NCBI GenBank assembly: GCA_025094145.1
Contig: JALLLS010000151.1
Coordinates: 1 to 38,453, forward strand
Direction: 5' to 3'
DNA length: 38,453 nucleotides
DNA from: Spinellus fusiger
Taxonomy: Eukaryota; Mucoromycota; Mucoromycetes; Mucorales; Phycomycetaceae
In this document: positions 10,388 to 38,453 of the stretch, piece by piece
Layout: each line of letters begins with the position of its first letter
How positions within the stretch are numbered: position 1 is the first letter of the stretch
The notes under the pieces: model-generated
Told to the model about the DNA's origin: nothing
Databases searched by the model: none
The model's input: the letters and a program-made list of their open reading frames with translations, nothing else
Translations under genes and position numbers: made by a program

Positions 10388-11233
10388 AGAATAGAATGGG
10401 CTCACAACCCTCCTAAATATCCATTAAAAGTAGCTTATCTTGAACGTCTTCAAAGTGAAATTACTAGTCTAGTACGTGGCAAGAATCTGCTGGTGACAGT
10501 AGCCCATGGACTATGTAGACCTGTTTGGGATCCAATTCTTCTACTACCGTGCACACACAAAGAAAGACATTCATGCAATTGACTATTATCTAAATCTTTT
10601 GCTGTGCATGGTTAAGTCTTTTGTTAAATGGCAAGATCTTTGGCCCAGTTTGTTAATACTGCTGCAAGCCATTGATTGAGCCATGTCTACTTGAGACTTT
10701 AAGGTAGAGCCATCAGCTGGTAGCCTGCTCATTGAGGCTGCTGATGGGTGTGTTGAGTGGGAACGCCAACGCCACCATAGAGTGCAAAGACTCCTGCAGC
10801 AACAGACGCTGTATCCTCACCTCCTCCGATATCTCCTCTACCACCCATTCTTAACCCATTTAGCAAAGCCAGAAGCTGCTAGTGTAGTTGCTGTATTTGT
10901 GTCCTCAGGATTGTCCAGGTTGCTCTAAGTATCCCTCATTGGATTTCGAATTGCCACAGGATGACAGTTATCTTTTTGGTGTCCTGGTTTCCTTGCTAAC
11001 TTTATGGCCTTTTGGATGTCTATTCATAATTCTTATTTTACCATCATTTTTTCCTCATCTGAGGTTTTGTATTTCTTGGTCCTTTTGTTTTCCATTCATT
11101 TGCATTCTTTTTTTTCACTTTCATATTTGAAGTGTTTTAATGTTTATTCTATTTTTTCAAAAGTTCTCATAGGGTGGCTAACATGCCCAATGCACAAATA
11201 GCAATCAACACCCATAAATAAAAAATACTTTGA

Positions 11234-12514: not shown

Positions 12515-12515
12515 G

Positions 12516-15500: not shown

Positions 15501-16303
15501 AAAACCTTACAGTTGCCAATGCTTATTATTATGATCTTCCCACACAATCCTTACAATGTTGTCCTCAGACAGATCAGCCAATGTGCCCTTACCTCCTCTC
15601 TCATTTCTTCTATGATGTGAACAATCATCACATCATCCACCCTCCATTCTTCATCCACTCATGCACTCCTCATATAAACCCACAGTCATCATATTCTGAT
15701 ACTGTGGATATTTCTTCTTCTCCCCTCACAACATCTTTCTTCAACTTGCCACTTATGCACTCCTCATCACAAGTCTTCTGCTCACTATGCTATACAACAC
15801 CTGTGCCAAACTCTTCTCCTGCTGCCTCACTTCCACCCAACAAGTGGAAAGCCTTTTGGAAGGCACCTATGTCACATGTGGCAAGGAATGTTTGGTTTTG
15901 CCTGTTGCATGGCAAACTGTCCTCCTTGTCACTCCTACACCACATTATGCCCACCATTGTTCTGTCTCTCTCTTGCCGCCTATGCTCTCACCCTTGCCAC
16001 AGTCCCAAACATTTCTTAGTGACTTGTCCAAGGGTTTGGCCTGTCTGGATGTCTGTTTTGCCATATTGGCTCAACATATACACTCCTTTGCAAGCAGATA
16101 CTATCCAACATTTACATTCCTTTTCTCTTCCTCCCAAAGGACCTCTGACTAGTAGTCAAGTCTATGGAGTGGTACTACAGGCAATTTGGCATGGCTACTG
16201 GGCCAGCCACTTCCACAACTCTCCTTTCCTTACCTCCACTGTCTCTGAACATGCCCAATCCTTTCTTACCACCCTTACCTGCAAAAACAAAGACATGTCA
16301 TAG
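12516..16303 (+). pseudogene. LINE-2 ORF2: APE endonuclease, RT and zf-RVT domain, broken
   Basis: It starts one base after the ORF1 stop (ATG 12516). Endonuclease motifs are SIASINCNSL, IIALQETYV, FIMGDFNMSLH and, after a frameshift near 13110, STIDYIYAP and SSWTDHSLLSA. Stops fall at 12618 (TAA), 13041 (TAA), 13580 (TGA) and 14948 (TGA). The last two occur where relatives usually have Arg (LRAG..W and LRGRATVV), so CGA to TGA is likely. RT motifs are SSPGPDGLPYPIL, GILLDQEKAYDHV and GLRQRDPLSPILLNF. The catalytic Y-A-D-D reads YANN, so polymerase activity is lost. Around 15840-16040, WKAFWKAPMSHVARNVWF, CRLCSHPCHSPKHFLVTC is a zf-RVT-type module. Confidence 0.85.
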
Positions 16304-20885: not shown

Positions 20886-21329
20886 ACCTTATGGCTGCTT
20901 CACAATTACAACTAAATGGTTGGTGGGGATATTCTACCTTATGGTAGAATTCACTCTCTTTGATCTTATGGTCAGTGTCTATATTACTACCTTATGGTAA
21001 TATTAATAACTGCCACCTTATGGTTGGTTCCTGGGATAAGCACTCCATTATTGAAACCATTAATTATTATGAGTCTTTACTCAATTGACTCTGATAGGTC
21101 AATATTGTTCTGTTAGAATTATTAATGAAGATGGCTCTTGTTAAGTGTCTGATAGTACACTGAGCTTTAGAAGGTGATTTGTAGTTACAACCAATCAGTG
21201 AGATTATACAGAGATGTACTATGGTACTTGTGTGCACTCAAGCTTTCATAGAGTATTCTGAATGTCACAGCACACTACTTGTGTTGAACAATTCATGAAG
21301 AATCTTTGGATTGAAGTTGGAACACAACA
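20886..21329 (-). repeat. Gypsy-type LTR, copy 2 (truncated)
   Basis: It starts on minus TGTTGTGTTCCAAC (copy 1: TGTCATGTTCTGAC) and matches copy 1 over about 440 bp, but lacks the TATA/AATAAA end. Its first bases provide the last codons of the TNP2-like ORF, so the LTR element landed inside that transposase. Confidence 0.7.
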
Positions 21330-23672
21330 TGCCTGTTGGTGTGCAGTATGTGTTCTTGGATAAACTTGTTGAACTGTTCTCTTCTCTCTGTTTTGTAACA
21401 AACAGGTGAACCAAAGCACAAGATATCCTTGTACAGGTGGTGAAGAAGATGCATCTTTAGGGTGCTGCTAATGGTCTTCTTCTTTGCAGGCACACTCAGA
21501 GCTGGCAATGTATCATATTGAATGATAGCAGCAACCAACTCCTTTATGGCAGATCTCACCTTGTTCACATATATATCCAAATATGCCTCAATATTCTGCA
21601 TATAAAGAAGAGACACAAGCAAACCAAGCTTCACAAAAAAATCAAGAATATTTGCTTTTGAGTTGTTATTGCTTATGAGTCTTCTTTGGGTCAGGTCATA
21701 CAGAATGATAGGCATTTGCTGGATAATGATCTTGAAATCTCTTCCAAGATAAGATCCACACAGACAAAATAGAGTACAGTGCTTTCTTGTGAAGGCTTTT
21801 GACTGATAATTAAATAAGCTTTCTTCCAAGTGCTTTACTTCTTTCTCAGAATAAAATGGCACCATGCCAATCACAAGATTCTTAGCAATGCTAAGAAGGA
21901 TAGTGTGGAGTATCTTGACAGGAAAATTCTTGGAGGGATCCCACAACTACAAGGACAAAAGAGCTTCACTACCAGTCAACTTGTAGCCAGTGTCAGAATT
22001 GCTTCTGAGGCCAGTATTGTTGGAGTTGCTGTTACAATGCTGGCACATCTCCACCAGATCCTCCTTCCTTCTTCTTGCATGAGCATTGCCATCCACTTTC
22101 TTCTGTTCTACTGTTGTGCTTCCACCATTAACCCAGTAACACTTTCTACATGGCAGCTTAGCCTTAGCACTAAGACTACATGCCACAACTGCATGCATAG
22201 GGTTGTCTGCCATGATAAGGTGCACCACTCTAACAACAAGAACAAGTTCACCATACTCAACGTCAAACATCTATACACCTTTCTTAAGTGCCTCAAGGTC
22301 CTTCACAAGCTCAGGAAGCATCTCCATTATTAAGAACTTGTTGCTGGTACAAATAAAGAAAATATTATCAACCTTGCACTGTCCTTTAAATGGCATTGCA
22401 GCAAGCAACACCATGCAAATCTCAAACTTATCTCACTTCTTGGTAGTATTGCCACTTGTATCATCTGAGAACAAGTTCAAAGGTACAATTTTCACTGGCA
22501 TGAACTGTCTGTTGGGGCTGTTAGTACTTGTAGCAATTCTTTTAAGTGGGTGGTGGGTGGTGGAGTTGATGTGGGTGTTATTGAAAAGTTGAATGCCTTT
22601 CATAATGTCCAGAACAACACTGCTACTGACAGTAAACAAACCAGATGCTTCTTCATGGGCTTCAGTCATCAATCTACCACTTGATGTAAAGAAATAGGCA
22701 AACTTGTAGGTTGAAGTCACACCTATAACAGGAGAGGCATACACTAAATCTCCTACCCAGAAATCAACAGAAATGTTGTTGATGGTAACAGCTACAATTG
22801 GATGTTAGAAGAGATGGTGTGTCTTTCAATTTTCACCCTGTTGGGGCAAAACACTTTGGTTGGGTGTGTTGTCTGGCAAGGCAGAGAGCATTGCTGTTTT
22901 GAGGGGTTTGGCAGTGATAAGCTTTAAGTGCTCAGATGGCTTGTTCATAGAGAACTCATGAATGATGGTGGTGGGGGGTAAGCCTTTGCACTTATTTACC
23001 ACAGAAACTTGGTGAGTGGTGGTAGGGAACTTGGGGACATTGTTCTTTGCTCTCTTGTTGAGGTTGAGAACCCTGTCCAAGGCAGGTATCTTCTCCCAAG
23101 GATTGGCAAGAGTGGCATCCTTTATGTCCTGGCACAAAGACATGACCTTCCCTGCAAGTGTCTTTGAGAAGCAACTCTCATTCTCAGAAAAGAAACAATG
23201 AAAGATCATTTCTAATCTGGTTGCAAATGGGAAAACACCTTCTACAAATGCAGTCTCCTCAAAAGTGTTGCTGCTATTATCAAGCTCCTCTCCTCTGTCA
23301 GCCCAAAGAGGCTTCTCTCCAAGAACTTCTTCAGCTTCATTGATAAACTCTCAGTCATTGTCTGAATCCTCTTCTACATGGAAGACTGTGGTGATGGCAG
23401 AGAAAGGTCTGTAGACAACAGCAATAAAGCATGATAAGTTTGATTCTTATTATTCTATGCCTTTATTTCTATGATATATACCAAGAAGAAGACTCAGCCA
23501 TGGAGCTATCCAAAGTAGAGAATGAGCAACATTACTTTTAGACTTAAGATTAATCTTACATGTTGTGGGTAGCCCTGTGTGATTTTATAAGAACTTTTAT
23601 TTTGAATGTCTTCTGGCAGACATTGCAGGCAAAGATTTCATTCTTTTTGAATCTGATGGTAGAGAAGGACAT
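21293..23672 (-). pseudogene. TNP2/Plavaka-like DNA transposase, broken, with probable intron
   Basis: Exon 1 (ATG 23672) encodes a C2H2 finger, FACNVCQKTFKIKVLIKSHRATH, as found at the N-terminus of fungal Plavaka-type transposases. A donor GTAAGA at 23559 and acceptor TTGTCTACAG ending at 23409 would remove 151 nt and join frames, giving an acidic segment then VEGVFPFATRLEMIFHCFFS. One frame then runs to 21293 through LFSDDTSGNTTKK, MADNPMHAVVACSL, KLPCRKCYW and FNKFIQEHILHTNRH, all typical TNP2 landmarks. In-frame stops lie at 23351, 22826, 22805, 22433 (where relatives have Trp), 22067 or below, and 21947. The C-terminus is replaced by an LTR from 21329. I see no terminal repeats. Confidence 0.75.
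23409..23559 (-). other. Probable spliceosomal intron in the TNP2-like gene
   Basis: It runs from GTAAGA to TTGTCTACAG, 151 nt on the minus strand. Splicing avoids the TAA just after the zinc finger and keeps the reading frame of the downstream acidic segment. Confidence 0.45.
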
Positions 23673-25449: not shown

Positions 25450-25452
25450 TAA

Positions 25453-25524
25453 GCCCAACGGGGGGGTCGAACCCCCAACCTTGAGATTAAGAGTCTCACG
25501 CTCTACCGATTGAGCTAGCCGGGC
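25453..25524 (-). tRNA. tRNA-Lys (anticodon CUU)
   Basis: 72 nt, no intron. The acceptor GCCCGGC pairs with GTTGGGC (two G-U pairs). The D arm has TAGCTCAATCGGTAGAGC with a good A box. The anticodon stem-loop is TGAGA-CTCTTAA-TCTCA with anticodon CTT. The T arm is GGGGG-TTCGACC-CCCCC with a good B box. All arms pair, so the gene looks functional and closely resembles eukaryotic cytosolic tRNA-Lys(CUU). Its 5' flank is not host DNA: SINE-2 begins three bases upstream. A second copy of its first 14 bases lies at 26407-26420, which shows that the SINE insertion duplicated nucleotides 1-14. Confidence 0.97.
25511..25524 (+). repeat. 14-bp target duplication at tRNA-Lys nucleotides 1-14
   Basis: TGAGCTAGCCGGGC on plus is the reverse complement of the tRNA 5' end. 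It is identical to the sequence after the SINE-1 tail (26407-26420, minus), 14 of 14. Confidence 0.8.
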
Positions 25525-25527
25525 CGA

Positions 25528-26053
25528 GATGTTTGGCTTGGCCGGATTAGTATTAAGATCTTCTAAACATTGCAGAGGTTGCAGGTTCAAATCCCAGGGA
25601 AGAACAATTTTTGCTCTAAAACAGGCATCCCAGCCCCTACTAATTTTCTGGCAAGGTGGGTGACTGCTTTTGGTTGCTGTGTGCTTGGCTGGCAGTTTTG
25701 ACCATGCGTCCTGTCCTTTTCCCTCCCACGCAAGCACTGCCTTGCAGTCCTTATGTTCATATATGCCCAAAAAGGGTTTAATGCTGTTTTCTTTCTGGTG
25801 TGGTTCCTGGTTTGGCTGGTCTGGTCTTGGGGTGCTGGCAGGTGGAAGGATGCCCTCATGGGCTTAATTAAGCAATCTTTCCTATCTTTCAAATAAGTCT
25901 TAGTCTTAGTAATTTGTCTGTATTTCAGTTCCTTTCCTTTCATTCTATGTTCCTATCCTTATATGTAAATTATGCTTCCCTAATATGTCTGTTGGAGTCA
26001 CTATACTATTTCTAGCTTGTGAAAAATACTCCTAAAATAAAAAATCTTTAACC
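25528..26053 (+). mobile_element. SINE-2: tRNA-headed SINE with LINE-type tail
   Basis: About 526 bp. The head starts GATGTTTGGC and has an A-box-like TGGCTTGGCCGG (25534-25545, one mismatch to consensus) and a B box GGTTCAAATCC (25584-25594). The body from about 25668 matches SINE-1 in reverse with a single CpG transition in roughly 386 bp. The last 60 bases (GTCACTATACTATTTC...AATCTTTAACC) match the 3' ends of LINE-A and LINE-C. The ORF on the opposite strand is a shadow. It is presumably pol III-transcribed and moved by LINE-A-type enzymes. Confidence 0.8.
25534..25594 (+). promoter_or_regulatory. SINE-2 internal pol III promoter (A and B boxes)
   Basis: A-box-like TGGCTTGGCCGG starts at +7 and B box GGTTCAAATCC begins 50 bases later, as in tRNA-derived SINEs. 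Confidence 0.6.
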
Positions 26054-26067
26054 TGAGCTAAAGCCAG
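26054..26067 (+). repeat. 14-bp target duplication after the SINE-2 tail
   Basis: TGAGCTAAAGCCAG. It is identical to the sequence before SINE-1 (26939-26952, minus), not to the one before SINE-2. Confidence 0.8.
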
Positions 26068-26406
26068 GATCTACTTTTGTCATTCCCTAATTTGGATAGA
26101 ATAGTTCTAAGCCTGGAGGTATGTGCACAGAGTGGAATAGCTAGTGGTTCTTGGTTTGGACTAAAGCCCATGTAGATCAAAGAAGAAGAATAAAAGAGAA
26201 GATAGAAGATAATGTTTATTCATTGAATTCACTTGATTATTTATACTAAATTCTACAGTGTACAATTGCACATACATGTCTTGGCATTTATCTTATTAAT
26301 TATATTATATTATATTATCTGTGTGTATCCAAAAAGGGAAGACATGTACAGCCAATAGTATTACTTTATTTTATAGCATGGTGTCTAGCATGGACAAATA
26401 TAAGAA
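26068..26406. other. Segment between the inverted SINEs, proposed inversion
   Basis: 339 bp without genes. It contains the TATAAATA/AATAAA module at 26215-26245, so part of it is probably an old LTR. The swapped duplications on its two sides suggest it was inverted after both SINEs inserted. Before inversion the 26406 end (ATATAAGAA on plus) would have been the original upstream flank of the tRNA-Lys gene. Confidence 0.5.
26215..26245 (-). promoter_or_regulatory. LTR core module: TATAAATA then AATAAA
   Basis: TATAAATA 26245-26238 and AATAAA 26220-26215 on minus. The surrounding bases also resemble 18990-19035. Confidence 0.4.
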
Positions 26407-26420
26407 GCCCGGCTAGCTCA
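26407..26420 (-). repeat. 14-bp target duplication: tRNA-Lys 5' fragment
   Basis: On plus GCCCGGCTAGCTCA, exactly nucleotides 1-14 of the tRNA-Lys, fused directly to the SINE-1 tail. Confidence 0.85.
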
Positions 26421-26936
26421 GGTTAAAGATTTTTTATTTTAGGAGTATTTTTCACAAGCTAGAAATAGTATAGTGACTCCAACAGACATATTAGGGAAGC
26501 ATAATTTACATATAAGGATAGGAACATAGAATGAAAGGAAAGGAACTGAAATACAGACAAATTACTAAGACTAAGACTTATTTGAAAGATAGGAAAGATT
26601 GCTTAATTAAGCCCATGAGGGCATCCTTCCACCTGCCAGCACCCCAAGACCAGACCAGCCAAACCAGGAACCACACCAGAAAGAAAACAGCATTAAACCC
26701 TTTTTGGGCATATATGAACATAAGGACTGCAAGGCAGTGCTTGCATGGGAGGGAAAAGGACAGGACGCATGGTCAAAACTGCCAGCCAAGCACACAGCAA
26801 CCAAAGATGGACCAGACATCTGCCGAGACTGCAGTAGGGGCTGTAGATGCCCATATTTTAACTGGGCAACTAGGGATTGAACCTAGGCTGCACAAGTGAC
26901 ATGACACATTACTACTACTGCATCATGCCAAACATC
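26421..26936 (-). mobile_element. SINE-1: tRNA-headed SINE with LINE-type tail
   Basis: 516 bp. The head starts GATGTTTGGCATG. The B box GGTTCAATCCC (26883-26873) lies in a well-paired T arm (CTAGG-TTCAATC-CCTAG). The A box is degraded. The head (about 130 bp) is unlike that of SINE-2 beyond the first ten bases, yet the remaining body and tail are nearly identical. Its 5' end directly follows the LINE-A tail and target duplication. Confidence 0.8.
26873..26883 (-). promoter_or_regulatory. SINE-1 B box
   Basis: GGTTCAATCCC on minus, an excellent pol III B box in a tRNA-like T arm. Confidence 0.65.
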
Positions 26937-26938
26937 TA

Positions 26939-26952
26939 CTGGCTTTAGCTCA
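26939..26952 (-). repeat. 14-bp target duplication between LINE-A and SINE-1
   Basis: On plus CTGGCTTTAGCTCA, which reads as tRNA positions 1-14 (acceptor CTGGCTT, TA, GCTCA). It is identical to 26054-26067 in reverse. Confidence 0.8.
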
Positions 26953-27197
26953 GGTTAAAGATTATTTTTATTAAAGGGGTATTTATCAAATGCTTCAGAA
27001 AGTAAAGTGACCCCACAGAAAAGAAAAGAAAAGAAACAAAGAAACATCTAAGACTAAAAGATATAAAAAATGCTAAACTACTTAACAGAAAACTCTAAAC
27101 TACTAACTAAACTACTGTTCTGGAGGTCTTCCACCCAATGTGCACTAAATGGTTGTGGCAGTGGGGGAGAGCAACCAGGAGTCAGACAGAAAAGGTT

Positions 27198-30100
27198 TCA
27201 TTCTTGTGAAGACCTAATACTGCCACCAGAGGCCAGCCACAGAGATCCAGGAGACAAGTCCTTAGGAAAGAAACAGTCTGGGCAACATAGTGTTTCTATG
27301 TGCCAGAGCAAGGCAAGTAAAGTGGGCCACCACACAGGACAGGGGGCACCACAACATGTTGAAAGGCTGTTGAGGCAATGGTCAATTGGGTAGACCCCAG
27401 CAGAGCAACCAGGAAGCAGGGACCAAAGGGAGGCAGGAACAAGAGGACACTCCAAAAGGTAATGGTGTGAGGTGTGGTCCAGGTCACAGGAACACTCTCT
27501 AGGCTTTCCAGGGAGTCACCCAAGATACCAACAGACCAAATGGCTTCTCTCTGCTCTAGAAGCAGGCACCAACAGAACAGGATCAATTCCCAACAAGGGG
27601 CAGCAGTGTTTGATCAACACCATGGTGGTGGTGGCAAGGAACAGGTCAAACTTATCTTGTCTGTACTGCTCAAAGAACAGCTTGAGTTGACTGTCTTTGG
27701 CAGGAACAGGTTCTGGCAGGGCAAGGTACAGAGCATTTTCCACCAGATATGAACTCCTTCTGGCCATGGGCAGAGAGGCAGAGAGCAGGACAAGAAGACA
27801 AGAAGAAGGCAAGGACCAAAAATGCAAGGCAAAATGGGTCACCAGCACATTTACCCTATGCTTCATGGAGGGCATGTTGGTAATGTGCTTCAGCACTGTT
27901 ATGGATGAAGTTGGGTGGCCACCCACCAGGAGATAGAGACACCTGTCTTGGAGCCTTTCAAGGGCCTTGAACTCTGTAGCCTTCAGATAAGAGATGGCTA
28001 GGCCAAACTCAAACTTTGGCCTCACAAAAGTCTTATAGATGTGGGAACAGAGGTGGAGAGAGAAGCCAGCATGGTTCACACCAACCAGGTTTAGGATGCC
28101 AATCACCTTGAGCATACCAGGGGACCAAGATGAGACCAGAGAAGAAGCAACCAAACCTTTCTTGCCAAAAGGCAGACCAAGATATGTCACCTCCTCTGCA
28201 TGTGGAAGTGGCACACCATACAGAGAGAGGGAGAGGCCACAGGACGTTGAAGAAGTGGAGGAGGGATGGTTCACCACCACACATTTGCTAGGGTTCCACC
28301 TGTACCCAAGGGAGAACAAATGCTGCTCTGCCAGAGCCAGCATGTCTTGTACTGCTTCTTTATCTCCAAAGACAGCCATGTCATCTGCAAAAAGCAGAGA
28401 GTTCACAGGAGCCAGGGCAGGACCAGAGCCAGAACCAAAACCAGAACCAGAACCAGAACCAGAGGGAAAGGACACACAGTGGGTTGTTGGCCTAGCAGCA
28501 CAACAAAGCAAGGCAGGCAGAGAGTTGATATACAGTGAGTATAGACATGGGCTCAACACTGACCCTTGGAGCACCCCAGTCACTGGAGCAAATGGTAAAG
28601 AAGAGTGGTTAGACAAGAGCACAGAGATGGTTACCTCATCAAAAAGGTGAGAGACAAATGAGAGGAGTGCTGGAGGAGTGCCAAAGGAAGACAGGGCTTG
28701 CCAGACCACATGTCTGTCCACCTTGTCATAAGCTGAGGATATGTCCAAGAGGGCCACAACAGGATAGTGATGGTGCTGGAGGTAGTGTGCATGCATCAAG
28801 TCATGCAGACACAGGGCCTGGTCTAGAGGACTTCTTCTGGGTTGGAAACCACCTTGTGCAAGGTCAGACACAGGAGCATAATGGGACAATGATGGGGCCA
28901 GGCAGAACTCCAGCAGCTTTCTTATCACTGAGGTCAAGGAAATAGGCTTGTAATTTTATGCCAATGACTTGTCACCCTTCTTAAAGATTGGGAATACTGC
29001 TGCATGTCTCCATAGACAAGGAGTGTAAGACCACTGACAGCAGACTGTGAAAAGCAAAGAAATGAGAGGGGCCACCACTGAGCACAGGGGCTTGAGCATT
29101 TCAGCCTTGATATGGTCAGTACCAGGGGCTTTCCTGTTAGGGAGAAGCTTGATACAACAACCCACCAAAGCAGAGTCAAACATTGGAATGCCAATGGATG
29201 GCAAACCAAGAGCACCAGACACACCAGACACACCAGGGGAAGGAAGGGGAGCATAGGAGGAGAAGGGAAGGAGGGAAGTGAAAGGACCAGGAGGGGGAGG
29301 ACAGGAGGAAGGAAGGATATCACCACTATATACAGTTTCAAGATGGTCAGCCATCACCTTTACAGCAACAGCTGGTCCATCAGGGTGGGAGAAGGAAGGA
29401 GTGGAAGTGTGGTGCCCCTTGAGATGCTTAACCTTGGCCAAAGCCTTGGAAAAGTTGGTCTCAAGTGACTTGCAGAAATTCTGCCATGACATACGTTTTG
29501 CAGACAGGACAGCAGACATAAAGGAAGCATGGGCAGCCTTGTACTTTGACCACCAGTGGACCTTGTCAATACCTGTACAGTATCTCCACTTTCTGTAGCA
29601 CCTCTCACAATTGGCAGCAGCAGATTGCAGGGCAGGAGACCAGTACTTTTTTCAATGGGATAGCCAAGGAGTCTTGGTACCCAGAGCTGCATCCAGAGAT
29701 AGGTAGATACACTCATTGAGTGAGTCCTTGAGACTGTCAATGAGTGGGTGAGTAGGGGGAAGGGAAGAAACAAGGGATTGTAGTTGGGTGCATAGGGGTT
29801 GGGAGAGGGAGGTGAATGTGGAAATGTACAGGTTGCATGTATCTTCTTCTTGTAGTCTTGATAGATTCCAGAGGCATTGGGCGTGAATGAATGATGAAGG
29901 GGAAGATGAGGGGGATAGGGAAGTAGAGGACATATCATAGGTAAAGGAAAGGGTAAGCATATGGTGGTCAGAGCCAAGGAAGAGGTCAGAAAAGATATTC
30001 ATAGAAGGGAGGGTCATAGGGAAATTGCATAGAAACAGGTCAATGATACTTGTGCATGTGCAATCATGCTGGAAACCATTCCAGGTAGCAGTGCCATAGG

Positions 30101-30614
30101 AAAGAGAAGAGTTCAACACAGACAGGGACTGCTCCTCAAGCCATGGAACCATGGCAGAGCCATGGGGAGACATCACTGCATCACCAGTAATGTCACCCAG
30201 CCTTGCATTGAAGTCACCACACAAGATGGTGTTGGGGAAAATAGGAAGAGAAGAAAGGACAGACATAAAGTGAGAACGTGGCATAGAAGGGGGGAGGTAC
30301 AGGCATAGAAAACGAAGTGGTCCCACTTTCAAAGAAAGGGTATACTTGTTTGGAGAAGGAAGTTGGTAGACAGGAAAGGGAAAGGAAGGAGACACCAGAG
30401 CAGAGACACCCATAGAGCCACGGTTGGCAGAGAGAACAGGAGAGCCATACAGATGGAATTGCTCCCAGTCTGTAGGTAGACAGGCAGGGGGAAGAAGCCA
30501 GGTTTCTGTGATAAAAAGAATAGAGGAGGGGGGACAGTGGGACAATACATCATGCACAATGGTTGTCTGAAGACCATTGGCATTCCATAAACTTACCTTT
30601 ATGGACTCACTCAT
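27198..30614 (-). pseudogene. LINE-A ORF2: endonuclease and reverse transcriptase, three stops
   Basis: One uninterrupted frame of 1139 codons except for TGA (29652-29654), TAA (28956-28958) and TGA (27516-27518). The two TGAs fall where LINE-B (HWQKFW) and LINE-C (GWLPGK) have Trp. Endonuclease (30614 to about 29900): SLWNANGLQ, LFITETWLL, ILCGDFNARLGD, SIIDLFLCN, GSDHHMLTLSF. RT: NRKAPGTDHIKAEMLKPL, FPIFKKGD, AQGGFQPRRSPLDQAL, LLDISSAYDKVDR (motif A), TGVLQGSVLSPCLYSLYIN (B), a Gly-Ser repeat insert, NSLLFADDMAVFG (C, intact), GYRWNPSKC and YLGLPFGKKGL. The C-terminal CxC...H...C motif is damaged (HTSHHY in place of HTSRRH). Confidence 0.9.
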
Positions 30615-31647
30615 AAATTGAGATTGTCATCATGGGTCATAGGGGTAAAGGAGGGGGAGGAGGAGACTTCACTCATCTCATCATCACTGATAGAGAAGGC
30701 TTGGTCATGGTGGTGGACAGCATAGGCAGGGTTGGAGAGGATCTCCTTGAGGTCTTCCTCAGAGATCCAGCCAACAGAAAGGAAGGACTTGGCCACAGAG
30801 GGGATCAGGAGGGTGTGGAGGTGGGTCAGGGCCAGGATGCACCTCTTATGGTGCACTTCATGGGCCTTGTCTTCCAATTCCTCAAAAGACAGGCTGGCAA
30901 AGGCAGGGTCAGCCAGGTGCTTGGGATCCAAGGGCTCAAAGCCAGAGATGACCTTTACTTGAGCCTTCTCCAAGAGCTCAAGGACAGTGGGGGCATACCC
31001 ATTGTGGACCAACAGGCCAAGGACAGAGCAGGCAGGGAAACAAATGTCCAGCAGACAGGAGGGCTCCAGACCAAAGACATGAAGGCAGCAATGGACCTCT
31101 TGTCTAGTCATCTTCCTAGACCTAGGAATATAAATATACTGATATCCTGTGACATCAGAAGCCTCAGAAAAGACTTGGACATTGGCTTCAAACTTCCTTT
31201 GGGAAGTCTTGGGCTTGGGGGAGCAGCAGGGTGGTTTTTCTTGGCCACAGTGGCCCAGGAGGAGTCTTTTACTGTTTTGACAGCATTGGCAGAGGCAGAC
31301 AAGGAGGAAAATCCTGAAGAAGAGACAGGAGAAACCAACATATTGTTAGTAATTTTTGTGTTTTTTACCTCCGACGATGACGCCATAGGTGTGACCGGTG
31401 TTGTGACGGTTGCGCGACGTCGCAGGCTTTCGTTCTCCGCCTCAAGCTCTGAAATCCGACCTCTCAGAGCCAAGATATCAGCCTTGGAGCTCTCTAGCTC
31501 CTGGACCTTTTTTGCCAGGTCTAAAACTAAGGCAGTCAGTGATTGGAAGTCCGACAGGGCCGGACTAGTTGGTGGTTCGGTGGTGGTCTCCATGGCACCA
31601 GAGACAAGGTGTAAAGGAGTCCCCAAAGGGAAAGGAGAGAAGCTCAT
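30611..31647 (-). pseudogene. LINE-A ORF1, one frameshift
   Basis: It starts MSFSPFPLG at 31647. A coiled coil follows (LVLDLAKKVQELESSKADILALRGRISELEAENESLRRR), then a Ser/Thr/Pro linker. A frameshift near 31165-31200 separates it from the conserved core: YIPRSRKMTRQEVHCCL, DICFPACSVLGLLVHNGY, GFEPLDPKHLADPAFASLS, and SVGWISEEDLKEIL near the end. The core closely matches LINE-B. The stop TGA overlaps the ORF2 ATG (30611-30614). The 31370-31440 stretch is unusually CpG-rich for this window. It probably binds element RNA as a multimer. Confidence 0.8.
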
Positions 31648-31800
31648 TGAAAATTAGGCCTAGAGAAGAATGGACAACAGATTTGAAAAGGCAGCAAATG
31701 GATGCACCCAAAAATGTACTGGATGCAAATGGATGGGGTGGAAAAAAAGTTAGTTAAAATTTGAAAACTTACCAAAAGTGAGGACAAAGTGAAAGAGAGT

Positions 31801-31810
31801 CTGGCTTTAG
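31801..31810 (-). repeat. Shortened target duplication between LINE-B and LINE-A
   Basis: CTGGCTTTAG on plus. The CTCA seen at the other junctions is missing here, consistent with a small deletion or a shifted cut. Confidence 0.6.
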
Positions 31811-32050
31811 GTTAAAGATTTTTTATTAAAGGAGATATATGCATTTGCTTAATGAAGCCTTACTGCACTCCTTGCACTAATTGAAATAAACAAAAAAGTT
31901 CTACAGGACAAAAGAACAAAAAAAGACAGGCAAGAGAAAGAAACTAAGACTACTAGACCTTAAGGCTGTCCCTGCTCTCCACTCTGCAGCTGTGTTAAAA
32001 GATTGTAACAGTGAGAGGGAGGAGGCCAGGGAAGCAGAACAAAAAGCTGT

Positions 32051-35000
32051 TCATTCATGCACCTGGTGCACCTGATCATGCCAAAGCATGCCTGGACTTG
32101 AGTGGGGACTAAACTCACTGTCAGGGTTGCAAAGCTGGTCTATATGCCAGAGAATTGTATGTAGAGGCACCCAGAAAGAAGGACAGGAAGAAGATTTCTT
32201 AGAAAGACAGTTGATGGTGTGATCCAATGGATGGCAGTGTTGTGGTGCTGGTGGCAGTTGATCCCATAGGTCCCTTGGAATTGCTGGACACTCTGCAAGA
32301 TGTCTTCTGGAGGTGTGCTCTGCTGGACTGCACTGACATGGACGTGGCTTACCAGGAAGCCATCCCATTCTCCAATGTATGAGCCTGCTTCTGTCATGTC
32401 TGGTTGCTGGCAAGAAGAGGACTGGATCAATGCCAAGTGTTGGCCTGCATGCCTTGATCAGCACCTTGTCTGTCACTTGCAGATACTGGTCAAGGAGCTG
32501 TTGGTGTTGTTTCTGGAAGTATTGTTTGAGTTGGGCAGATGATTCTGGCAATACTGCTGGAAGAGAGGCAAAGAGGTGATTCTTGGTAAGTGGTTCAAGT
32601 GGTGGCACTCCTGGACTGTTTAGCAGCAGAGACAAAAGACATTGGGGTGGAAGTGAGGCAGCACTAGACAGAACCTTGTCTTGAGAGAGTCTGAGCGAAA
32701 CTCATGCTGGGCAAGTCACAGATATGCTTCAACACCTGAGTGGAGCTAGTGGGGTGGTGCCTATGATCATTCTAGGCACCTGTCTTGTATCTTCTCCAGA
32801 GCTTTGATATCTTTCTTCAAAAGAACAGTGATTGCCAGACTATACTCAAACTTTGGCCTAATGAAGGTCTTGTATAGTCTTGAGCTGAGGAGCAAAGAGA
32901 AACCAGAACATGAGGCACCAACAGCATGCAGTGTGGACATGGCAAACATTGTGCCTTGCTTTCTGTGTGAGATAATCCCAGAGGAGTTGATTCCATTGTA
33001 GACAAAGGGCATGCCAAGGTAAATAAACTCATTGGCTGCTGGAAGGGCCTCTCCATATATCTTGAACTGGTTGGCCTGGGAAACAGAAGGGGGAAGAACC
33101 ACTGCACACTTGGAAGGACTCCATCTAAAGCCAACTGAAACGGAGTAGTGCTCTGCCAAATGCAGCATGTGCTGAACCTCTCCAACCTTACCAAAGACAG
33201 CAATATCATCAGCAAAGAAGAGTGAGTTGATTCCTGTAGGCTTATCCATAGTGGTGCTACTGTTGTCTGTTAGTTGATTCTTCATACTCTGCCAAAGATG
33301 ATGGTGAGCTAGACTGCACATGTGTTGTTGTTGTTGCTGTTGCCACACTTCTGAAAAGACATGCAAGTGGGTTAATGTAGATTGAATAAAGGTGGGGGCT
33401 GAGAACTGAGCCTTGCAGTACACCAGTTACTGGAGAGAACAAAGAGGACACATAGTTGTTCAGGATGACTGACACATGGACATCATCAAACAAGTGGACA
33501 AGCAAAGCAAGCAGTGGTGGCAGTGTGTTTCTCTTGTGCAGGGCATCCCAGATCAGGTTCCTGTCTACAGTGTCATAGGCTGCCTTGATGTCCAAGTAGG
33601 CTACCACAGGATATGGTGGTGTCTCTGATAATATCTCTTCATCAGGTTGTGTAAACACAGAGCCTGGTCCAGTGCACCTTGTCTTGGTCTGAATCCACCC
33701 TGGGCAACATCAAGTGGGGGAGAGTACTTGTGCAGGTCTGGTGCTAGACATACCTCAAACAGCTTTCTGAGAACAGAAGTCAATGAGATTGGCCTGTAGT
33801 TGGCTGGATCACTTGGATCACCCTTTTTGAAGATGGGGAACACCTGTGCTTGATGCCATGGGAGAGGAACATAGGACCACTGCCAACACATGGTGAACAG
33901 ACCAGAAAGAATGGGGACAATGGTGGTGCTGAGTGGCTTTAGCATTTCTGCTCTCAGGTGGTCTACTCCTGGTGCTTTCCTATTTGGCAGCAGCTTCATA
34001 CAGAACTTGACAACAGGTTGTGAGAATGGTGTTGTGGCTGCTGGGAAGGGATGCTGATGCTGCTGTGCTGTTGCTGGTGGTCTAAGTGATGTTAATAGTG
34101 AGCCTCTATAAACACTCTCAAGGTGTTGGCTCATCACTTCTGCTGCTGCTGCTGGCCCATCTGGGTGTTGGAATGTCTGCTGTGGCTGTCTTCTTCTACA
34201 AATCTGCTTCACCTTGGATGTAGCCTTTGCATAGTCTCTCTCCATGCTCTTGCAAAACTCCTGCCAGTGTCTTCTCTTGGCTCTTTGCACCTCACACCTA
34301 AAGGCCCTCTGTGCATCCAGGTGCCTCTGCCACCAACAAACCTTGTCCAGGCCTCTTGCCCTTTTCCAGCTCTTGAAGCTGTGCTCCCTCTTCTCAACTG
34401 CCTTCTGCAGAGCCTCACTCCAGAACTTCTGCCAATGTGCAGGTCTATGTGTCTTGCTTCCAACAGAGCTGTCCAAAGCAGAGTAGATGCAGCTGCTGAG
34501 CTGATCTGTCAGGCCATCAATGTCAGGACAGACACCAGGAGGATTGCTCACTGTAGATGTAATTAGTTGACATAGTTGAGAGGAGAGACTATCAAACTTG
34601 TCTCTGTATAGATCAGCAACATCTGGCTCCACAAGGCGTGAGAGTTCCACATTCTTCTGATGGGTGGTGGTGTGAGAGGAGCTGTAGACATGTCATGATC
34701 AAATGTCATACTGAGCAGCCTATGGTCTGAACCAAGAGAGAGATCACCATACACCATCATGAATGTGTTGTCAAAGAGACAGTTGGACACAAACAGATCC
34801 ACAATGCTACTCATCTCTTGTTCTTGTCGGAAAGAGTGGTAGGTTGCTTGACCAAAGGCATGCATGCTGTTCTGGACATACAGCTGACGTTCTTCTAGCC
34901 ATTCCAGTAGGGCTGTACCTCTAGGATTTGTGTCATGGTCCCCAAGAACTGCACCAAGTCTTGCATTCAGATCCCCACAGATGATTGTGTCCTCTGTCAA

Positions 35001-35366
35001 AGGAATGGAGTTGAGCACTGCAAAAGTGTCTTCAAGGGAAAGGGAGGGGGAAGGTAGAGACATATAATTCTCAGTGAACCAATTTGGACACCAAGGGCAT
35101 AGGGGGGGCATAGGGATGTGGGTAACATGGTAGGGACAGGAGGGAGAAACAAGAGCACAGATACCAAGTGAGCCATGGTAGCTGTTCTCAACAGGCTTGC
35201 CATAGGTGTGGAACTGTGTCCAGGAAGTAGGGAGGTGGGAGGGAGAGAGGAGCCAGGTTTCTGTGATAAAGAGCATAGTAAAGGAGTGTGAGTGTGTCAT
35301 AATGTCATATACCATAGACTGTTGAAGTCCATTGGCATTCCATAGGCCTATAGAGACTCTATTCAT
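32051..35366 (-). pseudogene. LINE-B ORF2: endonuclease and reverse transcriptase, frameshifted
   Basis: It starts MNRVSIGLWNANGLQ at 35366, overlapping the ORF1 stop by eight bases. Endonuclease: LFITETWLL, IICGDLNARLGAVLGDHD, SSIVDLFVSNC, SLGSDHRLLSMTF (to about 34600). Frame changes follow near 34600, 33630, 33330 and 32700. RT: NRKAPGVDHLRAEMLKPL, PIFKKGDPSDPANYRPIS, YLDIKAAYDTVDRN, TGVLQGSVLSPHLYSIYIN, NSLFFADDIAVFG (intact catalytic Asps) and FRWSPSKC. A Gln-rich run (WQQQQQQH) lies between motifs B and C, where LINE-A has Gly-Ser repeats. The C-terminus keeps CQCSPAEHTSRRHLAEC, the intact form of the putative zinc motif. Confidence 0.88.
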
Positions 35367-36275
35367 ATTGGTGTTTGTTGTTGGAGGACTCAGACATGGC
35401 AACAGAGCTTCTTCTGCTCACTTGGAAGGCATTTGCTGGGTCATCTCTGTCAATGTGTCCCTTGTTGGTTGGCTTGGGGGGCATCTGCTCTTCACTGATC
35501 CAGCCATTGGCTACAAAAGCAGCAGCAACAGAAAAAGCAATGTGGGGGCGCATGTACTGGATAGCCTGCATGCATCTGTTCTCTTGGAGTCTGGCTGCCT
35601 CAATGCACATCTGCTCAACATTGAAGGTGGCATATTTTGGGTCTGCCAGATGCTTGGGGTCCAGAGGGTCAAAGTTCTTGTAGATATCTACCTTGGCCTT
35701 ATTCAAGACTGCAGTAAGAGACTCAACATACTGGACATGGACCAAAAGACCAAGAACAGAACAGGCAGGGAAACACACATCCAGGATTCTACCTGTTTCC
35801 AGGCCAAGGGTTCTCAGGAGGCATCTTGCCTCTGGGCGGTTCATGTGTCTGCCTCTTGGAATGTACACATAAGTGTAACCTTTAGGACCTTCTTGGATGG
35901 TGAAGGTGCTGGGCAGGTCTTTTTGGCTACAGTAGCCCATGTGGAGTCCTTGGCTGTCTTCTCAGCCTGTTGGTGGTTCTTTGGTGCCTGTGTCACCTCT
36001 TGTATCACAGGAGTTGCCTTATTAGTCAAGGCAGCAAGCTTTGCCTCAAGGGCTGCCACAGTCTCTCTCAGCTGCTTGTTTTCTTCCATAATGGCCTCAA
36101 AGGCCTCAAGTCTCTGCTTCTGATGGGTGTGCTCAGAAGCCATTTGAGCAAAGCTCTGTTGGAGTGACGTCACTGCCGAGATAAGTTGAGCTTTGGTGGT
36201 GGTGGTGGTGGTGGTGGCATTAGCCAAAAGGTGTTGTTGTCCTGCTGGAGAAGAGAACATGGTGGATCTGGTCAA
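35359..36275 (-). pseudogene. LINE-B ORF1, one frameshift
   Basis: It starts MTRSTMFSSPAGQQ at 36275. It has a poly-Thr run (encoded by a trinucleotide repeat at 36193-36216), a coiled coil (ISAVTSLQQSFAQMASEHTHQKQRLEAFEAIMEENKQLRETVAALEAKLAAL in full, of which only the start and end are diagnostic), a linker, and a frameshift near 35850-35930. The core follows: YVYIPRGRHMNRPEARCLL, DVCFPACSVLGLLVHVQY, NFDPLDPKHLADPKYATF, VANGWISEEQM. It ends TAT GAA TAG over the ORF2 start. It closely parallels LINE-A ORF1 and is distantly similar to LINE-1 ORF1. Confidence 0.78.
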
Positions 36276-36453
36276 GTTTGAGAGCTGGAGGTCTGAAACT
36301 TTTGTAGAAGATAGTTGGGAGATGGGGGAAGATGGATTGATGATGGATGCAGATGGATGCAGCTTTTTGGAGACGGATGGACGTTTTTGAATTTTTGGAT
36401 TGAACTTATGAATTTTGAAAAAAACTAATCTTTAGCAGAAAGAGAAGAAGAGT

Positions 36454-36467
36454 CCGGCTTTAGCTCA
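36454..36467 (-). repeat. 14-bp target duplication between LINE-C and LINE-B
   Basis: CCGGCTTTAGCTCA on plus, which reads as tRNA positions 1-14. It differs from 26939-26952 by one CpG-type transition (CCGG versus CTGG). Confidence 0.8.
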
Positions 36468-38453
36468 GGTTAAAGATTATTTTTATTAAAGGGGTATTTA
36501 TCACATGCTTCAAAAAGTAAAGTGACCCCACAGAAAAGAAAAGAAAAGAAACAAAAAAACATCTAAGACTAAAAAATATAAAAAATGCTAAACTACTTGA
36601 CAGAAAACTCTAAACTACTCTCTAAACTACTGTTCTGGAGGTCTTCCACCCAACATGCACTAAATGGTTGTGGCAGTGGGGGAGAGCAACCAGGAGACAG
36701 ACAGAAAAGGTTTCATTCTTGTAAGGACCTAATACTGCCACCAGAGGCCAGCCACAGGGATCCAGGAGACAAGTCCTCAGGAAAGAAACAGTCTGGGCAA
36801 CATAGTGTTTCTATGTGCCAGAGCAAGGCAAGCAAGGCAGGCCACCACACAGGACAGGGAGCACCACAACGTGTTGACATGCTGTTGAGGCAGGAGTCAA
36901 TAGGGTGAACCCCAGCAGAACAAACAGGCAGCAAAGACCAAAGGGAGGCAGGCACAAGAGAACACTCCAGCAGGTGACGGCGCGAGGTATGGTCAGAACC
37001 ACAAGGACACTCTCTAGGCTTTCCAGGGAGCCACCCAAGATGCCAACGGACCAAACGGCTTCTCTCTGCTCTAGAAGCAGGCACCAACAGAACAGGATCA
37101 ATTCCCAACAAGGGGCGGCAGTGTTTGATCAACACCATGGTGGTGGTGGCAAGGAACAGGTCAAACTTGTGCTGGCGGTACTCCTCAAAGAACAGCTTCA
37201 GCTGGCTATCTTTGGTAGGAACAGGGTCTGGCAGGGCAAGGTACAGTGGGTTCTTTACCAGATATGAGCTCCTTCTGGCCATGGGCAGAGAGGCAGAGAG
37301 CAGGACAAGAAGACAAGAGGAAGGCAAGGACCAAAAACGCAAGGCAAAACGGGTCACCAGCACATTTACTCTATGCTTCATGGAGGGCATGTTGGTAATG
37401 TGCTTCAGCACTGTTGTGGATGAAGTTGGGTGGCCACCCACCAGGAGACGGAGACACCTGTCTTGGAGCCTTTCAAGGGCTTTGTACTCTGCTGCTTTCA
37501 AGTAAGAGATGGCCAGGCCAAACTCAAACTTTGGCCTCACAAAAGTCTTGTAGATGTGTGAGCAGAGGTGGAGAGAGAAGCCAGCACAGTTCACACCAAC
37601 CATGTTTAGGATGCCCATCACCTTGAGCACACCAGGGGACCAAGAAGACACCAAAGAGGAAGCAGACAGACTCTTCTTGCCAAAGGGCAGACCAAGATAT
37701 GTCACCTTCTCTGCATGTGGAAGTGGCACACCATACAGAGAGAGGGAGAGGCCACGAGATGTTGAGGAAGTAGAGGAGGGATGGTTCAACACCACACACT
37801 TGCTAGGGTTCCACCTGTACCCAAGAGAGAACGAATGCTGCTCTGCCAGAGCCAGCATATCTTGTACTGCATCTTTGTCTCCAAAGACAGCCACGTCATC
37901 TGCAAAAAGCAGAGAGTTCACAGGAACCAAGGCAGGACCAGAGCCAGAACCAGAACCAGAACCAGAACCAGAGGGAAAGGACACACAGTGGGTTGTTGGC
38001 CTAGCAGCACAACGAAGCAAGGCAGGCAGAGAGTTGATATACAGTGAGTATAGACATGGGCTCAACACTGACCCTTGGAGCACTCCAGTCACTGGAGCAA
38101 ATGGTAAAGAAGAGTGGTTAGACAAGAGCACAGAGATGGTTACCTCATCAAAAAGGTGAGAGACAAATGAGAGGAGTGCTGGAGGAGTGCCAAAGGAAGA
38201 CAGGGCTTGCCAGACCACATGTCTGTCAACCTTGTCATATGCTGAAGATATATCCAGAAGTGCCACAACTGGATAATGGTGGTGTTGAAGGTAGTGAGCA
38301 TGCATCAGGTCATGCAGACCCAGGGCCTGGTCCAGAGAACTTCTCTTTGGGCAAAATCCACCTTGTGCCAAGTCAGGAACTGGAGAATACTGTGACAATG
38401 AGGGGGCAATGCAGAATTCCAGCAGCTTTCTGACCACTGAGGTAAGGGAAATT
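36468..38453 (-). mobile_element. LINE-C: youngest LINE, 5' part beyond the window
   Basis: The 3' UTR and most of the RT are present. The tail and 3' UTR are nearly identical to LINE-A (AATAAAAATAATCTTTAACC), and the ORF2 C-terminal half differs from LINE-A mainly by CpG transitions. It retains CpGs and open reading, so it is younger than LINE-A. If it is as long as LINE-A, its 5' end lies about 2.9 kb beyond the right edge. Confidence 0.93.
36713..38453 (-). CDS. LINE-C ORF2, reverse transcriptase and C-terminal domain (partial, open)
   Basis: Open from the window edge to the stop at 36713 (580 codons visible), so the start is not in view. RT motifs: ISLTSVVRKLLEF, AQGGFCPKRSSLDQAL, LLDISSAYDKVDR (A), TGVLQGSVLSPCLYSLYIN (B), a short Gly-Ser repeat, NSLLFADDVAVFG (C, both Asps present), GYRWNPSKC and YLGLPFGKKSL. 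The thumb and C-terminal parts include FVRPKFEFGLAISYLK, GIDPVLLVPASRAERSRLV and GWLPGKPRECPCG followed by HTSRRHLLEC, a CxC-H-H-C cluster that may bind zinc. No inactivating change is visible, so this is the best candidate for a recently active copy and a possible source of machinery for the SINEs. Confidence 0.9.
   Translation of the reverse strand, partial: ISLTSVVRKLLEFCIAPSLSQYSPVPDLAQGGFCPKRSSLDQALGLHDLMHAHYLQHHHYPVVALLDISSAYDKVDRHVVWQALSSFGTPPALLSFVSHLFDEVTISVLLSNHSSLPFAPVTGVLQGSVLSPCLYSLYINSLPALLRCAARPTTHCVSFPSGSGSGSGSGSGPALVPVNSLLFADDVAVFGDKDAVQDMLALAEQHSFSLGYRWNPSKCVVLNHPSSTSSTSRGLSLSLYGVPLPHAEKVTYLGLPFGKKSLSASSLVSSWSPGVLKVMGILNMVGVNCAGFSLHLCSHIYKTFVRPKFEFGLAISYLKAAEYKALERLQDRCLRLLVGGHPTSSTTVLKHITNMPSMKHRVNVLVTRFALRFWSLPSSCLLVLLSASLPMARRSSYLVKNPLYLALPDPVPTKDSQLKLFFEEYRQHKFDLFLATTTMVLIKHCRPLLGIDPVLLVPASRAERSRLVRWHLGWLPGKPRECPCGSDHTSRRHLLECSLVPASLWSLLPVCSAGVHPIDSCLNSMSTRCGAPCPVWWPALLALLWHIETLCCPDCFFPEDLSPGSLWLASGGSIRSLQE

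What the first reader, a model, noticed from the sequence alone, without database searches (positions are those of the whole stretch)
25453..36467. LINE/SINE group that appears to insert at nucleotides 1-14 of tRNA genes
Junction sequences next to SINE and LINE 3' ends are 14 bp long and, read antisense to the element, fit tRNA numbering exactly: seven acceptor bases, TA (8-9), GCTCA (10-14). At tRNA-Lys the duplication is GCCCGGCTAGCTCA, precisely bases 1-14 of the intact gene, and it is repeated at 26407-26420. At the LINE junctions it is C(C/T)GGCTTTAGCTCA. The first nick would fall after base 14 inside the A box and the second at base 1. The tRNA body stays whole while its upstream flank is replaced. 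tRNA-associated non-LTR elements are known in other eukaryotes (for example Dictyostelium TREs), but those insert outside the gene. A cut inside the D arm with a duplication that repairs the tRNA would be a different solution.
Basis: partly seen in the sequence, partly recalled or inferred. Interest (0 to 1): 0.88.

Follow-up and report, generated by a model that had tools for sequence, protein, structure and literature searches.

The report
Retrotransposons that rebuild tRNA genes
In a probably mucoralean fungal genome, families of LINE and SINE retrotransposons sit directly against the first base of tRNA genes with a copy of the gene's first 14 bases at their far end, which most likely means that they cut inside the tRNA gene when they insert and that the 14-base duplication rebuilds it; that would be a way to live in essential genes without breaking them.

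Summary
Of 52 genomic AATCTTTAACC words I read 51; 46 are element 3' ends, and 30 of these 46 are followed by a 14-mer within two mismatches of bases 1-14 of a tRNA gene, at that register only. Where one element spans both ends, its 5' end abuts base 1 of the matching gene and the duplication is 14 bp. The window's C(C/T)GGCTTTAGCTCA is tRNA-Tyr 1-14. Tails A and S1 go to ...TCA starts (20 of 20), tails B, C and F8 to ...TA(A) starts (25 of 26). On a tree of LINE 3' parts the class changed twice, the second change resting on families found through a TAGCTCA word. One copy has an uninterrupted ORF2 with APE-type endonuclease and reverse transcriptase. An off-register and a non-tRNA insertion keep the 14-bp duplication, so the stagger belongs to the enzyme, as in R1. 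Against simplicity: five class II LINEs have unlike tRNA sequences at their ends, probably through recombination, of which the window's two SINEs show an example. I saw no report of LINEs that cut inside tRNA genes and restore them.

The parts
25452..25524 (-). tRNA-Lys(CTT) gene, whole, 65.1 bits; bases 1-14 = 25511-25524
25525..26053 (+). SINE1 (tail S1), 5' end against base 1 of tRNA-Lys, 3' end AATCTTTAACC
26054..26067 (-). relic of tRNA-Tyr bases 1-14 (CTGGCTTTAGCTCA) at SINE1's 3' end
26068..26406 (.). flank with LTR-like sequence (by eye), inferred to have been inverted by recombination between SINE1 and SINE2
   Evidence: sequence; swapped 14-mers; inversion is inference
26407..26420 (+). 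copy of tRNA-Lys bases 1-14 (GCCCGGCTAGCTCA) at SINE2's 3' end
26421..26938 (-). SINE2 (tail S1), different 5' head, body 99.7% identical to SINE1 over 385 bp
26939..26952 (+). relic of tRNA-Tyr bases 1-14 (CTGGCTTTAGCTCA) between SINE2 5' end and LINE1 3' end
26953..31800 (-). LINE1, family A (class I target), full length with stops in ORF2
31796..31809 (+). 14-bp duplication AGAGTCTGGCTTTA: LINE1 5' end plus tRNA-Tyr 1-9 (off-register site of LINE2)
31810..36448 (-). LINE2, family B (class II target), frames broken
36449..36462 (+). second copy of LINE2's 14-bp duplication, AGAGTCCGGCTTTA
36454..36467 (+). tRNA-Tyr bases 1-14 (CCGGCTTTAGCTCA) at LINE3's 3' end
36468..38453 (-). LINE3, family A, cut by the contig end; the tRNA-Tyr gene is inferred to lie beyond
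   Evidence: position of the gene is inference

Best explanation
LINEs of several families, and the SINEs that share their 3' tail, lie antisense between two copies of bases 1-14 of tRNA genes, and most likely got there by target-primed reverse transcription in which the LINE's own APE-type endonuclease is predicted to nick the coding strand after base 14 (inside the A box) and the other strand about 14 bp away at base 1, so that the duplication would rebuild the gene. The freed 3' end ...TRGCTCA or ...TRGTNTA would prime copying of the element RNA from its AATCTTTAA(C/A)C end; the 5' end is joined to base 1, so the tRNA body stays whole with the element's 5' end as its new upstream flank, and a 14-base relic is left at the far end. 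Shown: positions, 14-bp repeats, 5' truncation, two target classes by family, whole tRNA bodies, tandem stacks, one uninterrupted ORF2. Inferred: the nicks, their order, that the endonuclease itself reads the A-box sequence, and that the rebuilt genes are expressed. Fourteen bases is just long enough: a shorter stagger from the same nick would cost the gene part of its 5' acceptor strand.
For: Register: 30 of 46 element ends not chosen by their target are within 2 mismatches of a tRNA 1-14 word, none at 12 other offsets. Both ends: 22 of 70 junction words have a second copy that passed the script's filter; 18 of the 22 are the start of a tRNA gene (Lys 6, Thr 5, Ile 3, Cys, Ala, Tyr, Pro), in 14 of these 18 with a single element in between; chance extension on the 5' side is 0-1 base in 17 of 18 (Ala is complicated by a 12-bp tandem copy), and A15 against G fixes the border in the six Lys pairs. 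tRNA side: of the 63 Rfam-scored tRNA matches, 18 of 36 with a YTCA start carry an element within 12 bp of base 1 and 0 of 27 with other starts (Fisher p 7e-6). Classes: A and S1 20 of 20 TCA; B, C, F8 0 of 26 TCA (p 2e-13). SINE tails S1 and S2, close to class I LINE tails, are at TCA words in 15 of 15, but 7 of the 15 were found through a TAGCTCA word and one (C111) is weakly assigned. Tree: 27 LINE 3' ends, class II not one clade (AU p 7e-68). Enzyme: P0077, 1175 aa without stop, EN and RT domains; EN model pLDDT 92.5, best matches LINE-1 and TRAS1 endonucleases. The 14-bp stagger holds off-register (window LINE2) and at a non-tRNA site, C147 ACAAATATAGCTCA/GCAAATATAGCTCA. Census by protein (39 of 857 candidates scored): 22 of 34 LINE copies with a 3' part have a listed 3' word within 500 bp of the expected place, one of them (C120) by a neighbouring SINE's word, its own being a variant word at 378370.
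Against: Five class II LINEs join unlike tRNA sequences: C17:7459 Asp relic with Val gene, C79:14696 Val-like relic with Pro, C36:56827 GCATTCAATAGTTTA with Glu, C49:22047 GCCGTGATAGTATA with GTTTCCATGGTCTA, C1:185276 Glu relic with GCATCAATAGTTTA; in C36 and C49 the 5' end was read and abuts base 1; recombination is my explanation, not shown. Eleven of 46 ends look like class II tRNA starts for which the reference holds no gene; searches for two of these words with a tRNA body gave 0 places. One true end, C121, is at no tRNA-like site. A seven-base word is far too common to give this specificity alone, so more bases or a host factor must help. Of 34 LINEs found by protein, 12 have no listed 3' word: one at a contig end, one interrupted by another element, one (C176:14699) 514 bp from a known D end, nine unexplained. 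In 4 of the 18 tRNA pairs more than one element lies between the copies. In the occupancy count the library holds pieces of five of the counted loci plus the window, and 10 of the 63 genes had only 100 bp of upstream sequence, 9 of them in the group with 0 hits. No empty site from another strain, no biochemistry.
Confidence: 0.88

Rival explanations
1. Tethering: the integration complex is brought to tRNA genes by the Pol III machinery (TFIIIB/TFIIIC), as for TRE5-A and Ty3, and the endonuclease then cuts at a weakly chosen word that happens to lie in the A box.
For: Nearly all ends are at tRNA starts although seven-base words such as TAGCTCA must occur thousands of times in 38 Mb (estimate, not counted); TRE5-A needs the B box and its ORF1 protein binds TFIIIB subunits (PMC5391098 and PMC5006619, passages and sections read).
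Against: Register is exact to the base; tRNA genes with other A-box words (Arg, Asn, Met and one unnamed) are equally Pol III genes but carry 0 of 27 elements at base 1; each LINE family keeps to one word class; a non-tRNA TAGCTCA site was used with the same 14-bp duplication.
Confidence: 0.3
2. The 14-mers are part of the elements' own 3' ends, carried from copy to copy, and the true duplications lie outside.
For: The relics at five class II LINEs do not match the tRNA at the other end.
Against: Within one tail family the 14-mer changes with the tRNA and equals, within 2 mismatches, the start of the tRNA gene downstream in 18 pairs.
Confidence: 0.02
3. The mismatched class II copies are not recombinants but one-step events in which cDNA primed at one tRNA gene was joined at its 5' end to a second nicked tRNA gene, linking two loci.
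For: Five mismatched copies, all class II; the two whose 5' ends were fetched for this (C36, C49) are exact at base 1.
Against: The window itself shows swapped ends that plain recombination between inverted SINEs explains; by my count matched ends are 6 of 6 for class I LINEs and 7 of 12 for class II, too few to separate the classes (not run as a test).
Confidence: 0.2
4. The duplications come from recombination or gene conversion between tRNA genes and not from retrotransposition.
For: Repeats near tRNA genes appear to recombine here.
Against: 5'-truncated copies with 14-bp repeats (C12, C30, C114), shared LINE/SINE tails, and a 14-bp repeat at a non-tRNA site are marks of target-primed reverse transcription.
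Confidence: 0.02

Closest known systems
R1 retrotransposons of arthropod 28S rRNA genes
   Same: LINE at one exact site in a multicopy RNA gene, 14-bp duplications, tandem copies separated by the 14-bp word, stray sites with 4-9 bp of target identity (PMC2718515, passages read).
   Different: Target is the tRNA A box; the duplication rebuilds the gene, whereas an R1 insertion interrupts its 28S gene (recalled). R1 clade membership was not tested.
Dictyostelid TRE5/TRE3 and NLTR-A/NLTR-B
   Same: Non-LTR elements at tRNA genes; D. purpureum NLTR-A is found 2-6 bp upstream of the first base (PMC5006619, abstract and sections 9 and 11 read).
   Different: They lie outside the gene (TRE5 about 50 bp upstream, TRE3 about 100 bp downstream); TRE5-A needs the B box and contacts TFIIIB. 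No cut inside the gene or gene-restoring duplication is described in the sections read. NLTR-A has an RNase H domain, which Pfam does not find in P0077.
Dada DNA transposons
   Same: Insert in the A box of tRNA genes at nucleotides 8-13, words TAGCTC, TAGTCT, TGGCGC (PMC3706591, PMC8869645, passages read).
   Different: DDE transposase, 6-7 bp duplications, sit inside the gene and split it.
Dewa and other target-specific LINEs (Keno, Mutsu)
   Same: Target-specific LINEs at small RNA genes; Dewa is at the spacer of tRNA-Leu (one sentence in PMC3706591). Two introductions list tRNA genes among the targets of non-LTR elements (PMC5035012, PMC8869645), citing papers that I did not see.
   Different: As far as seen, a spacer and not the tRNA gene itself; the original 2004 paper was not looked up.
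Ty3/gypsy elements of Rhizopus oryzae
   Same: Co-localise with tRNA genes in a mucoralean genome (PMC2699053, passages read).
   Different: LTR elements; the passages seen say nothing of LINE sites.

Membership tests
APE-type non-LTR retrotransposon (LINE) | Apurinic-type endonuclease domain | tested here: met
APE-type non-LTR retrotransposon (LINE) | Reverse transcriptase related to LINE ORF2 | tested here: met
   PF00078, 79.5 bits; LINE-1 ORF2p best PDB sequence match, E 6e-17
APE-type non-LTR retrotransposon (LINE) | Target-site duplications with 5'-truncated copies | tested here: met
   C12, C30, C114 truncated with 14-bp repeats
R1 clade | 14-bp duplication and exact site in a multicopy RNA gene | tested here: met
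   PMC2718515
R1 clade | 28S rRNA target | tested here: not met
   tRNA starts
R1 clade | RT places with R1 | not tested
Dictyostelid TRE | Insertion about 50 bp upstream or 100 bp downstream | tested here: not met
   element 5' end at base 1
Dictyostelid TRE | Poly(A) tail | tested here: not met
   3' ends read are AATCTTTAACC or AATCTTTAAAC
Dictyostelid NLTR-A | RNase H domain after RT | tested here: not met
   no RNase H family listed for P0077 at E up to 1
Dada DNA transposon | DDE transposase, 6-7 bp duplication | tested here: not met
   EN and RT proteins, 14 bp
SINE | 3' tail shared with a partner LINE, no coding sequence | tested here: met
   tails S1 and S2 resemble the LINE tails; about 520 bp
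SINE | Pol III (tRNA-like) head | tested here: inconclusive
   GGTTCAAATCC-like word in the head, no Rfam match for the two heads

The most novel reading that the evidence does not exclude
A group of mucoralean LINEs has evolved a family of A-box endonucleases with a 14-bp stagger that is exactly what a tRNA gene needs to survive a cut in its own promoter; target class has switched at least twice within the group, SINEs follow their partner LINE's class, and repeated insertion, each copy docking between its predecessor and the reborn gene, has rewritten the upstream flank of half of the eligible tRNA genes sampled. Protein relatives in Rhizopus, Mucor, Phycomyces and Umbelopsis suggest that the strategy may be as old as the Mucoromycota.
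Probability: 0.55. Interest if true: 0.85.

Novelty: new variant of a known kind. Interest (0 to 1): 0.78.

Why it matters
The tRNA-associated retrotransposons that I could read about avoid harm by landing outside the gene, and RNA-gene LINEs such as R1 accept the loss of a copy (recalled). Here the cut is inside the gene's internal promoter and the duplication would repair it, so every insertion leaves the target ready for the next. The families form a natural series of related endonucleases with two word classes, useful for asking how an APE-type endonuclease reads DNA and for site-specific retrotransposition into tRNA genes without loss of the gene. It also leaves fossil tRNA starts that decay (22 of 32 changes in 48 assigned relics are CpG transitions) beside selected living ones.

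Tried and rejected
The ideas that TGAGCTA belongs to the element, and that the 14-mers are chance, were tested and dropped. Two patterns built on relic words GCATCAATAGTTTA and GCCGTGATAGTATA with a tRNA body found 0 places, so those relics stay unassigned. The EN sequence alone found no PDB sequence match. Comparing EN sequences of classes I and II gave too few rows to name specificity residues. ORF lists of three loci gave no usable host gene, so the host is named only by LINE relatives; the third protein search was not used. My first reading of ORF2 in L043 was on the wrong strand, corrected. Literature: nine paper searches were answered; in the titles and abstract starts that they listed, and in the passages that I opened, I saw no LINE that cuts inside tRNA genes and restores them. 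The library holds open-licence papers only; Kojima and Fujiwara 2004 was not looked up or seen.

Rows dropped before counts: 5 of 51 AATCTTTAACC words were set aside as not element ends because the bases inside them do not resemble any tail (C2, C24, C157, C176:64142 beyond the cut-off, C13 at the cut-off and dropped by eye); 1 of 52 (C54:39277) was never read. Families D, E and S2 and 2 of 10 S1 rows were found through a TAGCTCA-containing pattern and are kept out of the unselected counts; a tail-only search found 9 D ends, 6 of them known class I and 3 unread, and 4 E ends, all known class I. The C110 pair is an inverted duplicate counted twice. C141 was put in family A by its tail but stands apart on a long branch in the tree.
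Full report
The window is contig C59 of an unnamed 38.08 Mb assembly in 197 contigs. The homologues of the LINE proteins that carry an organism name are from Rhizopus, Mucor, Phycomyces, Lichtheimia, Umbelopsis, Cokeromyces, Pilaira, Parasitella and Dichotomocladium, which I know as Mucoromycota; so the host is probably a mucoralean fungus. This is inference from mobile genes only.

In the window, ARAGORN finds one tRNA gene, tRNA-Lys(CTT), and Rfam places it at 25452-25524 minus. SINE1 begins at its base 1. The word CCGGCTTTAGCTCA, unexplained in the finding, is bases 1-14 of a tRNA gene elsewhere in the genome (C135:262669; ARAGORN calls it Asn with an intron, but it reads as an intron-bearing tRNA-Tyr to me). 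So the right half of the window is a tandem stack of LINEs grown on a tRNA-Tyr that should lie beyond the contig end. SINE1 and SINE2 are inverted to each other, share 385 bp at 99.7% with different heads, and carry each other's 3' 14-mers; an inversion by recombination explains this.

Genome-wide test. AATCTTTAACC occurs 52 times (reversed control 22). I read 51; 46 are element ends by the bases inside them, 5 are not. The 14 bases after the end were compared with 26 distinct tRNA 1-14 words, 22 from tRNA genes in held sequence and 4 added from recurrent tRNA-type starts: 12 identical, 15 with one mismatch, 3 with two, so 30 of 46; the 5 non-element words have 7-9 mismatches; at 12 other offsets from -40 to +14 there are none. 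The remaining 16 of 46: two off-register (C59:31810, C130:12198), one with five extra bases (C177), one decayed Glu word by my reading (C120:353285), one non-tRNA site (C121), and eleven that look like class II tRNA starts without a gene in the reference. A later search found GGTTTCTTGGTGTAGTTGGTTATCAC, which I read as tRNA-Val, at 5 places; its start is the relic at C37 and is one change from that at C79.

Both ends. In one search, 22 of 70 junction words (51 of the GG form, 19 of the GT form found through a TAGCTCA pattern) have a second copy within the held sequence that passed the filter (up to 3 mismatches, up to 1 if not at a tRNA or another junction). Eighteen second copies are the start of a tRNA gene: Lys 6, Thr 5, Ile 3, and one each of Cys, Ala, Tyr and Pro. 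This count includes two junction words at C120 that point to one Thr gene, the inverted duplicate at C110, and C54:23324, whose tRNA-Lys the script did not label. In 14 of the 18 one element fills the gap; at C120 (two), C197:3855 and C135:263667 more lies in between. The other four are two relic-to-relic tandems, the window's LINE2 and the non-tRNA site C147. The repeat is 14 bp; chance extensions of 1-3 bases on the 3' side occur where tRNA base 15 is G, and none in Lys, where it is A.

tRNA side. All 63 Rfam-scored tRNA matches (63 of 1446 first-look candidates scored, so a lower bound) were fetched with 100 to 700 bp of upstream sequence used. An element 5' end or truncated interior lies within 12 bp of base 1 in 18 of 36 genes whose bases 11-14 are YTCA and in 0 of 27 others. 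Five ARAGORN-only tRNAs are left out of this count. The seven genes that start GCCCGGCTAGCTCA with 65.1 bits include four with an element (C59, C110 twice, C125) and three without (C101, C116, C135), so the body is not damaged.

Two target classes. Tail families A and S1 are followed by words ending TCA in 20 of 20; B, C and F8 by words ending TA or TAA in 25 of 26, the 26th (C177) ending TAGTGTA plus five bases. D, E and S2 were found through a TAGCTCA pattern and all rows end in TCA; tail-only searches support this for 6 of 9 D ends (3 unread) and 4 of 4 E ends. A maximum-likelihood tree of 27 LINE 3' parts puts C beside A (support 95/99) and B with D and E (100/100); class II is not one clade (AU p 7e-68) and two changes are needed. 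Without D and E one change could suffice, so the count of two rests on them. Two rows, C141 and C120:377358, are on long branches.

Protein. The A copy at tRNA-Ala (C135) has an uninterrupted ORF2 of 1175 aa and an ORF1 of about 345 aa, with endonuclease and RT domains. Among 39 aligned sequences the invariant residues include E37, Y106, D134, D192 and H217, and N11 and N136 are nearly so, the catalytic pattern of APE endonucleases as I recall it. The EN model (pLDDT 92.5) is closest to human LINE-1 and TRAS1 endonucleases; APE1 and other nucleases follow closely, so this shows fold, not specificity.

Mechanism. In the presumed primer strand the 3' end is ...TRGCTCA or ...TRGTNTA, base 14. The second end is at base 1. 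The 14-bp distance is kept when the first cut is elsewhere: window LINE2 and probably C130 (whose second copy has one base fewer by my reading) cut after base 9, at CTTTA or GTTTA, words like the class II TTTA; C147 shows 14 bp, with one mismatch, at a non-tRNA TAGCTCA. So I infer that the endonuclease reads DNA sequence and that the stagger is its own. TAGCTCA alone is too common to explain the specificity; further bases, chromatin or Pol III factors are likely to help.

What does not fit: five class II LINEs with unlike ends (listed under evidence against). Repeated LINEs recombining is the plain explanation and the window gives a worked example with SINEs, but I could not test it inside those LINEs.

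Literature. R1 has 14-bp duplications, tandem arrays with 14-bp spacers and stray sites (PMC2718515, passages). Dictyostelid elements lie outside the gene; NLTR-A 2-6 bp upstream is the nearest (PMC5006619, abstract and sections 9 and 11). A 2018 review, in the passages seen, gives windows from 2 bp upstream or 7 bp downstream outwards (PMC5911963). Dada DNA transposons use the same A-box words but split the gene (PMC3706591, PMC8869645, passages). Two introductions list tRNA genes among non-LTR targets without detail (PMC5035012, PMC8869645). Rhizopus oryzae Ty3-type elements co-localise with tRNA genes (PMC2699053, passages). None of what I saw describes a LINE that cuts in the A box and rebuilds the gene.

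Noticed in passing
upstream of many tRNA genes, e.g. C61:5925, C197:82844, C71:17946; window 26068-26406: LTR-like ends (by eye) about 10-16 bp upstream of tRNA genes, also at Arg, Asn and Met genes that the LINEs avoid; looks like Ty3-type position targeting beside the LINE system.
   Followed up: partly
window 1161-4605: Frames that look by eye like broken Ty3-type pol pieces on the minus strand.
   Followed up: no
window 6159-11200 and 11258-16303: Two further LINE-like elements on the plus strand; the first has EN 37% and part of RT 43% identical to P0077. The ends of the first were looked at but target sites were not worked out.
   Followed up: partly
relic 14-mers genome-wide: 22 of 32 changes in 48 assigned relics are CpG transitions, although CpG positions are 18 of 210 in the reference words: relics decay, perhaps by cytosine methylation, while the genes are kept.
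   Followed up: yes
C135:146507 (L043): The tRNA-Ala start next to the uninterrupted LINE carries an extra 12-bp tandem copy of itself, perhaps a second aborted event.
   Followed up: no
C110:491823-495448 and C71:17946-21461: tRNA genes with identical upstream sequence lie in inverted orientation to each other, probably inverted duplicates.
   Followed up: no
window 5111-5626 and 21293-21946: Frames resembling a mariner-type transposase and an unnamed protein similar to one at C136; named by eye only.
   Followed up: no
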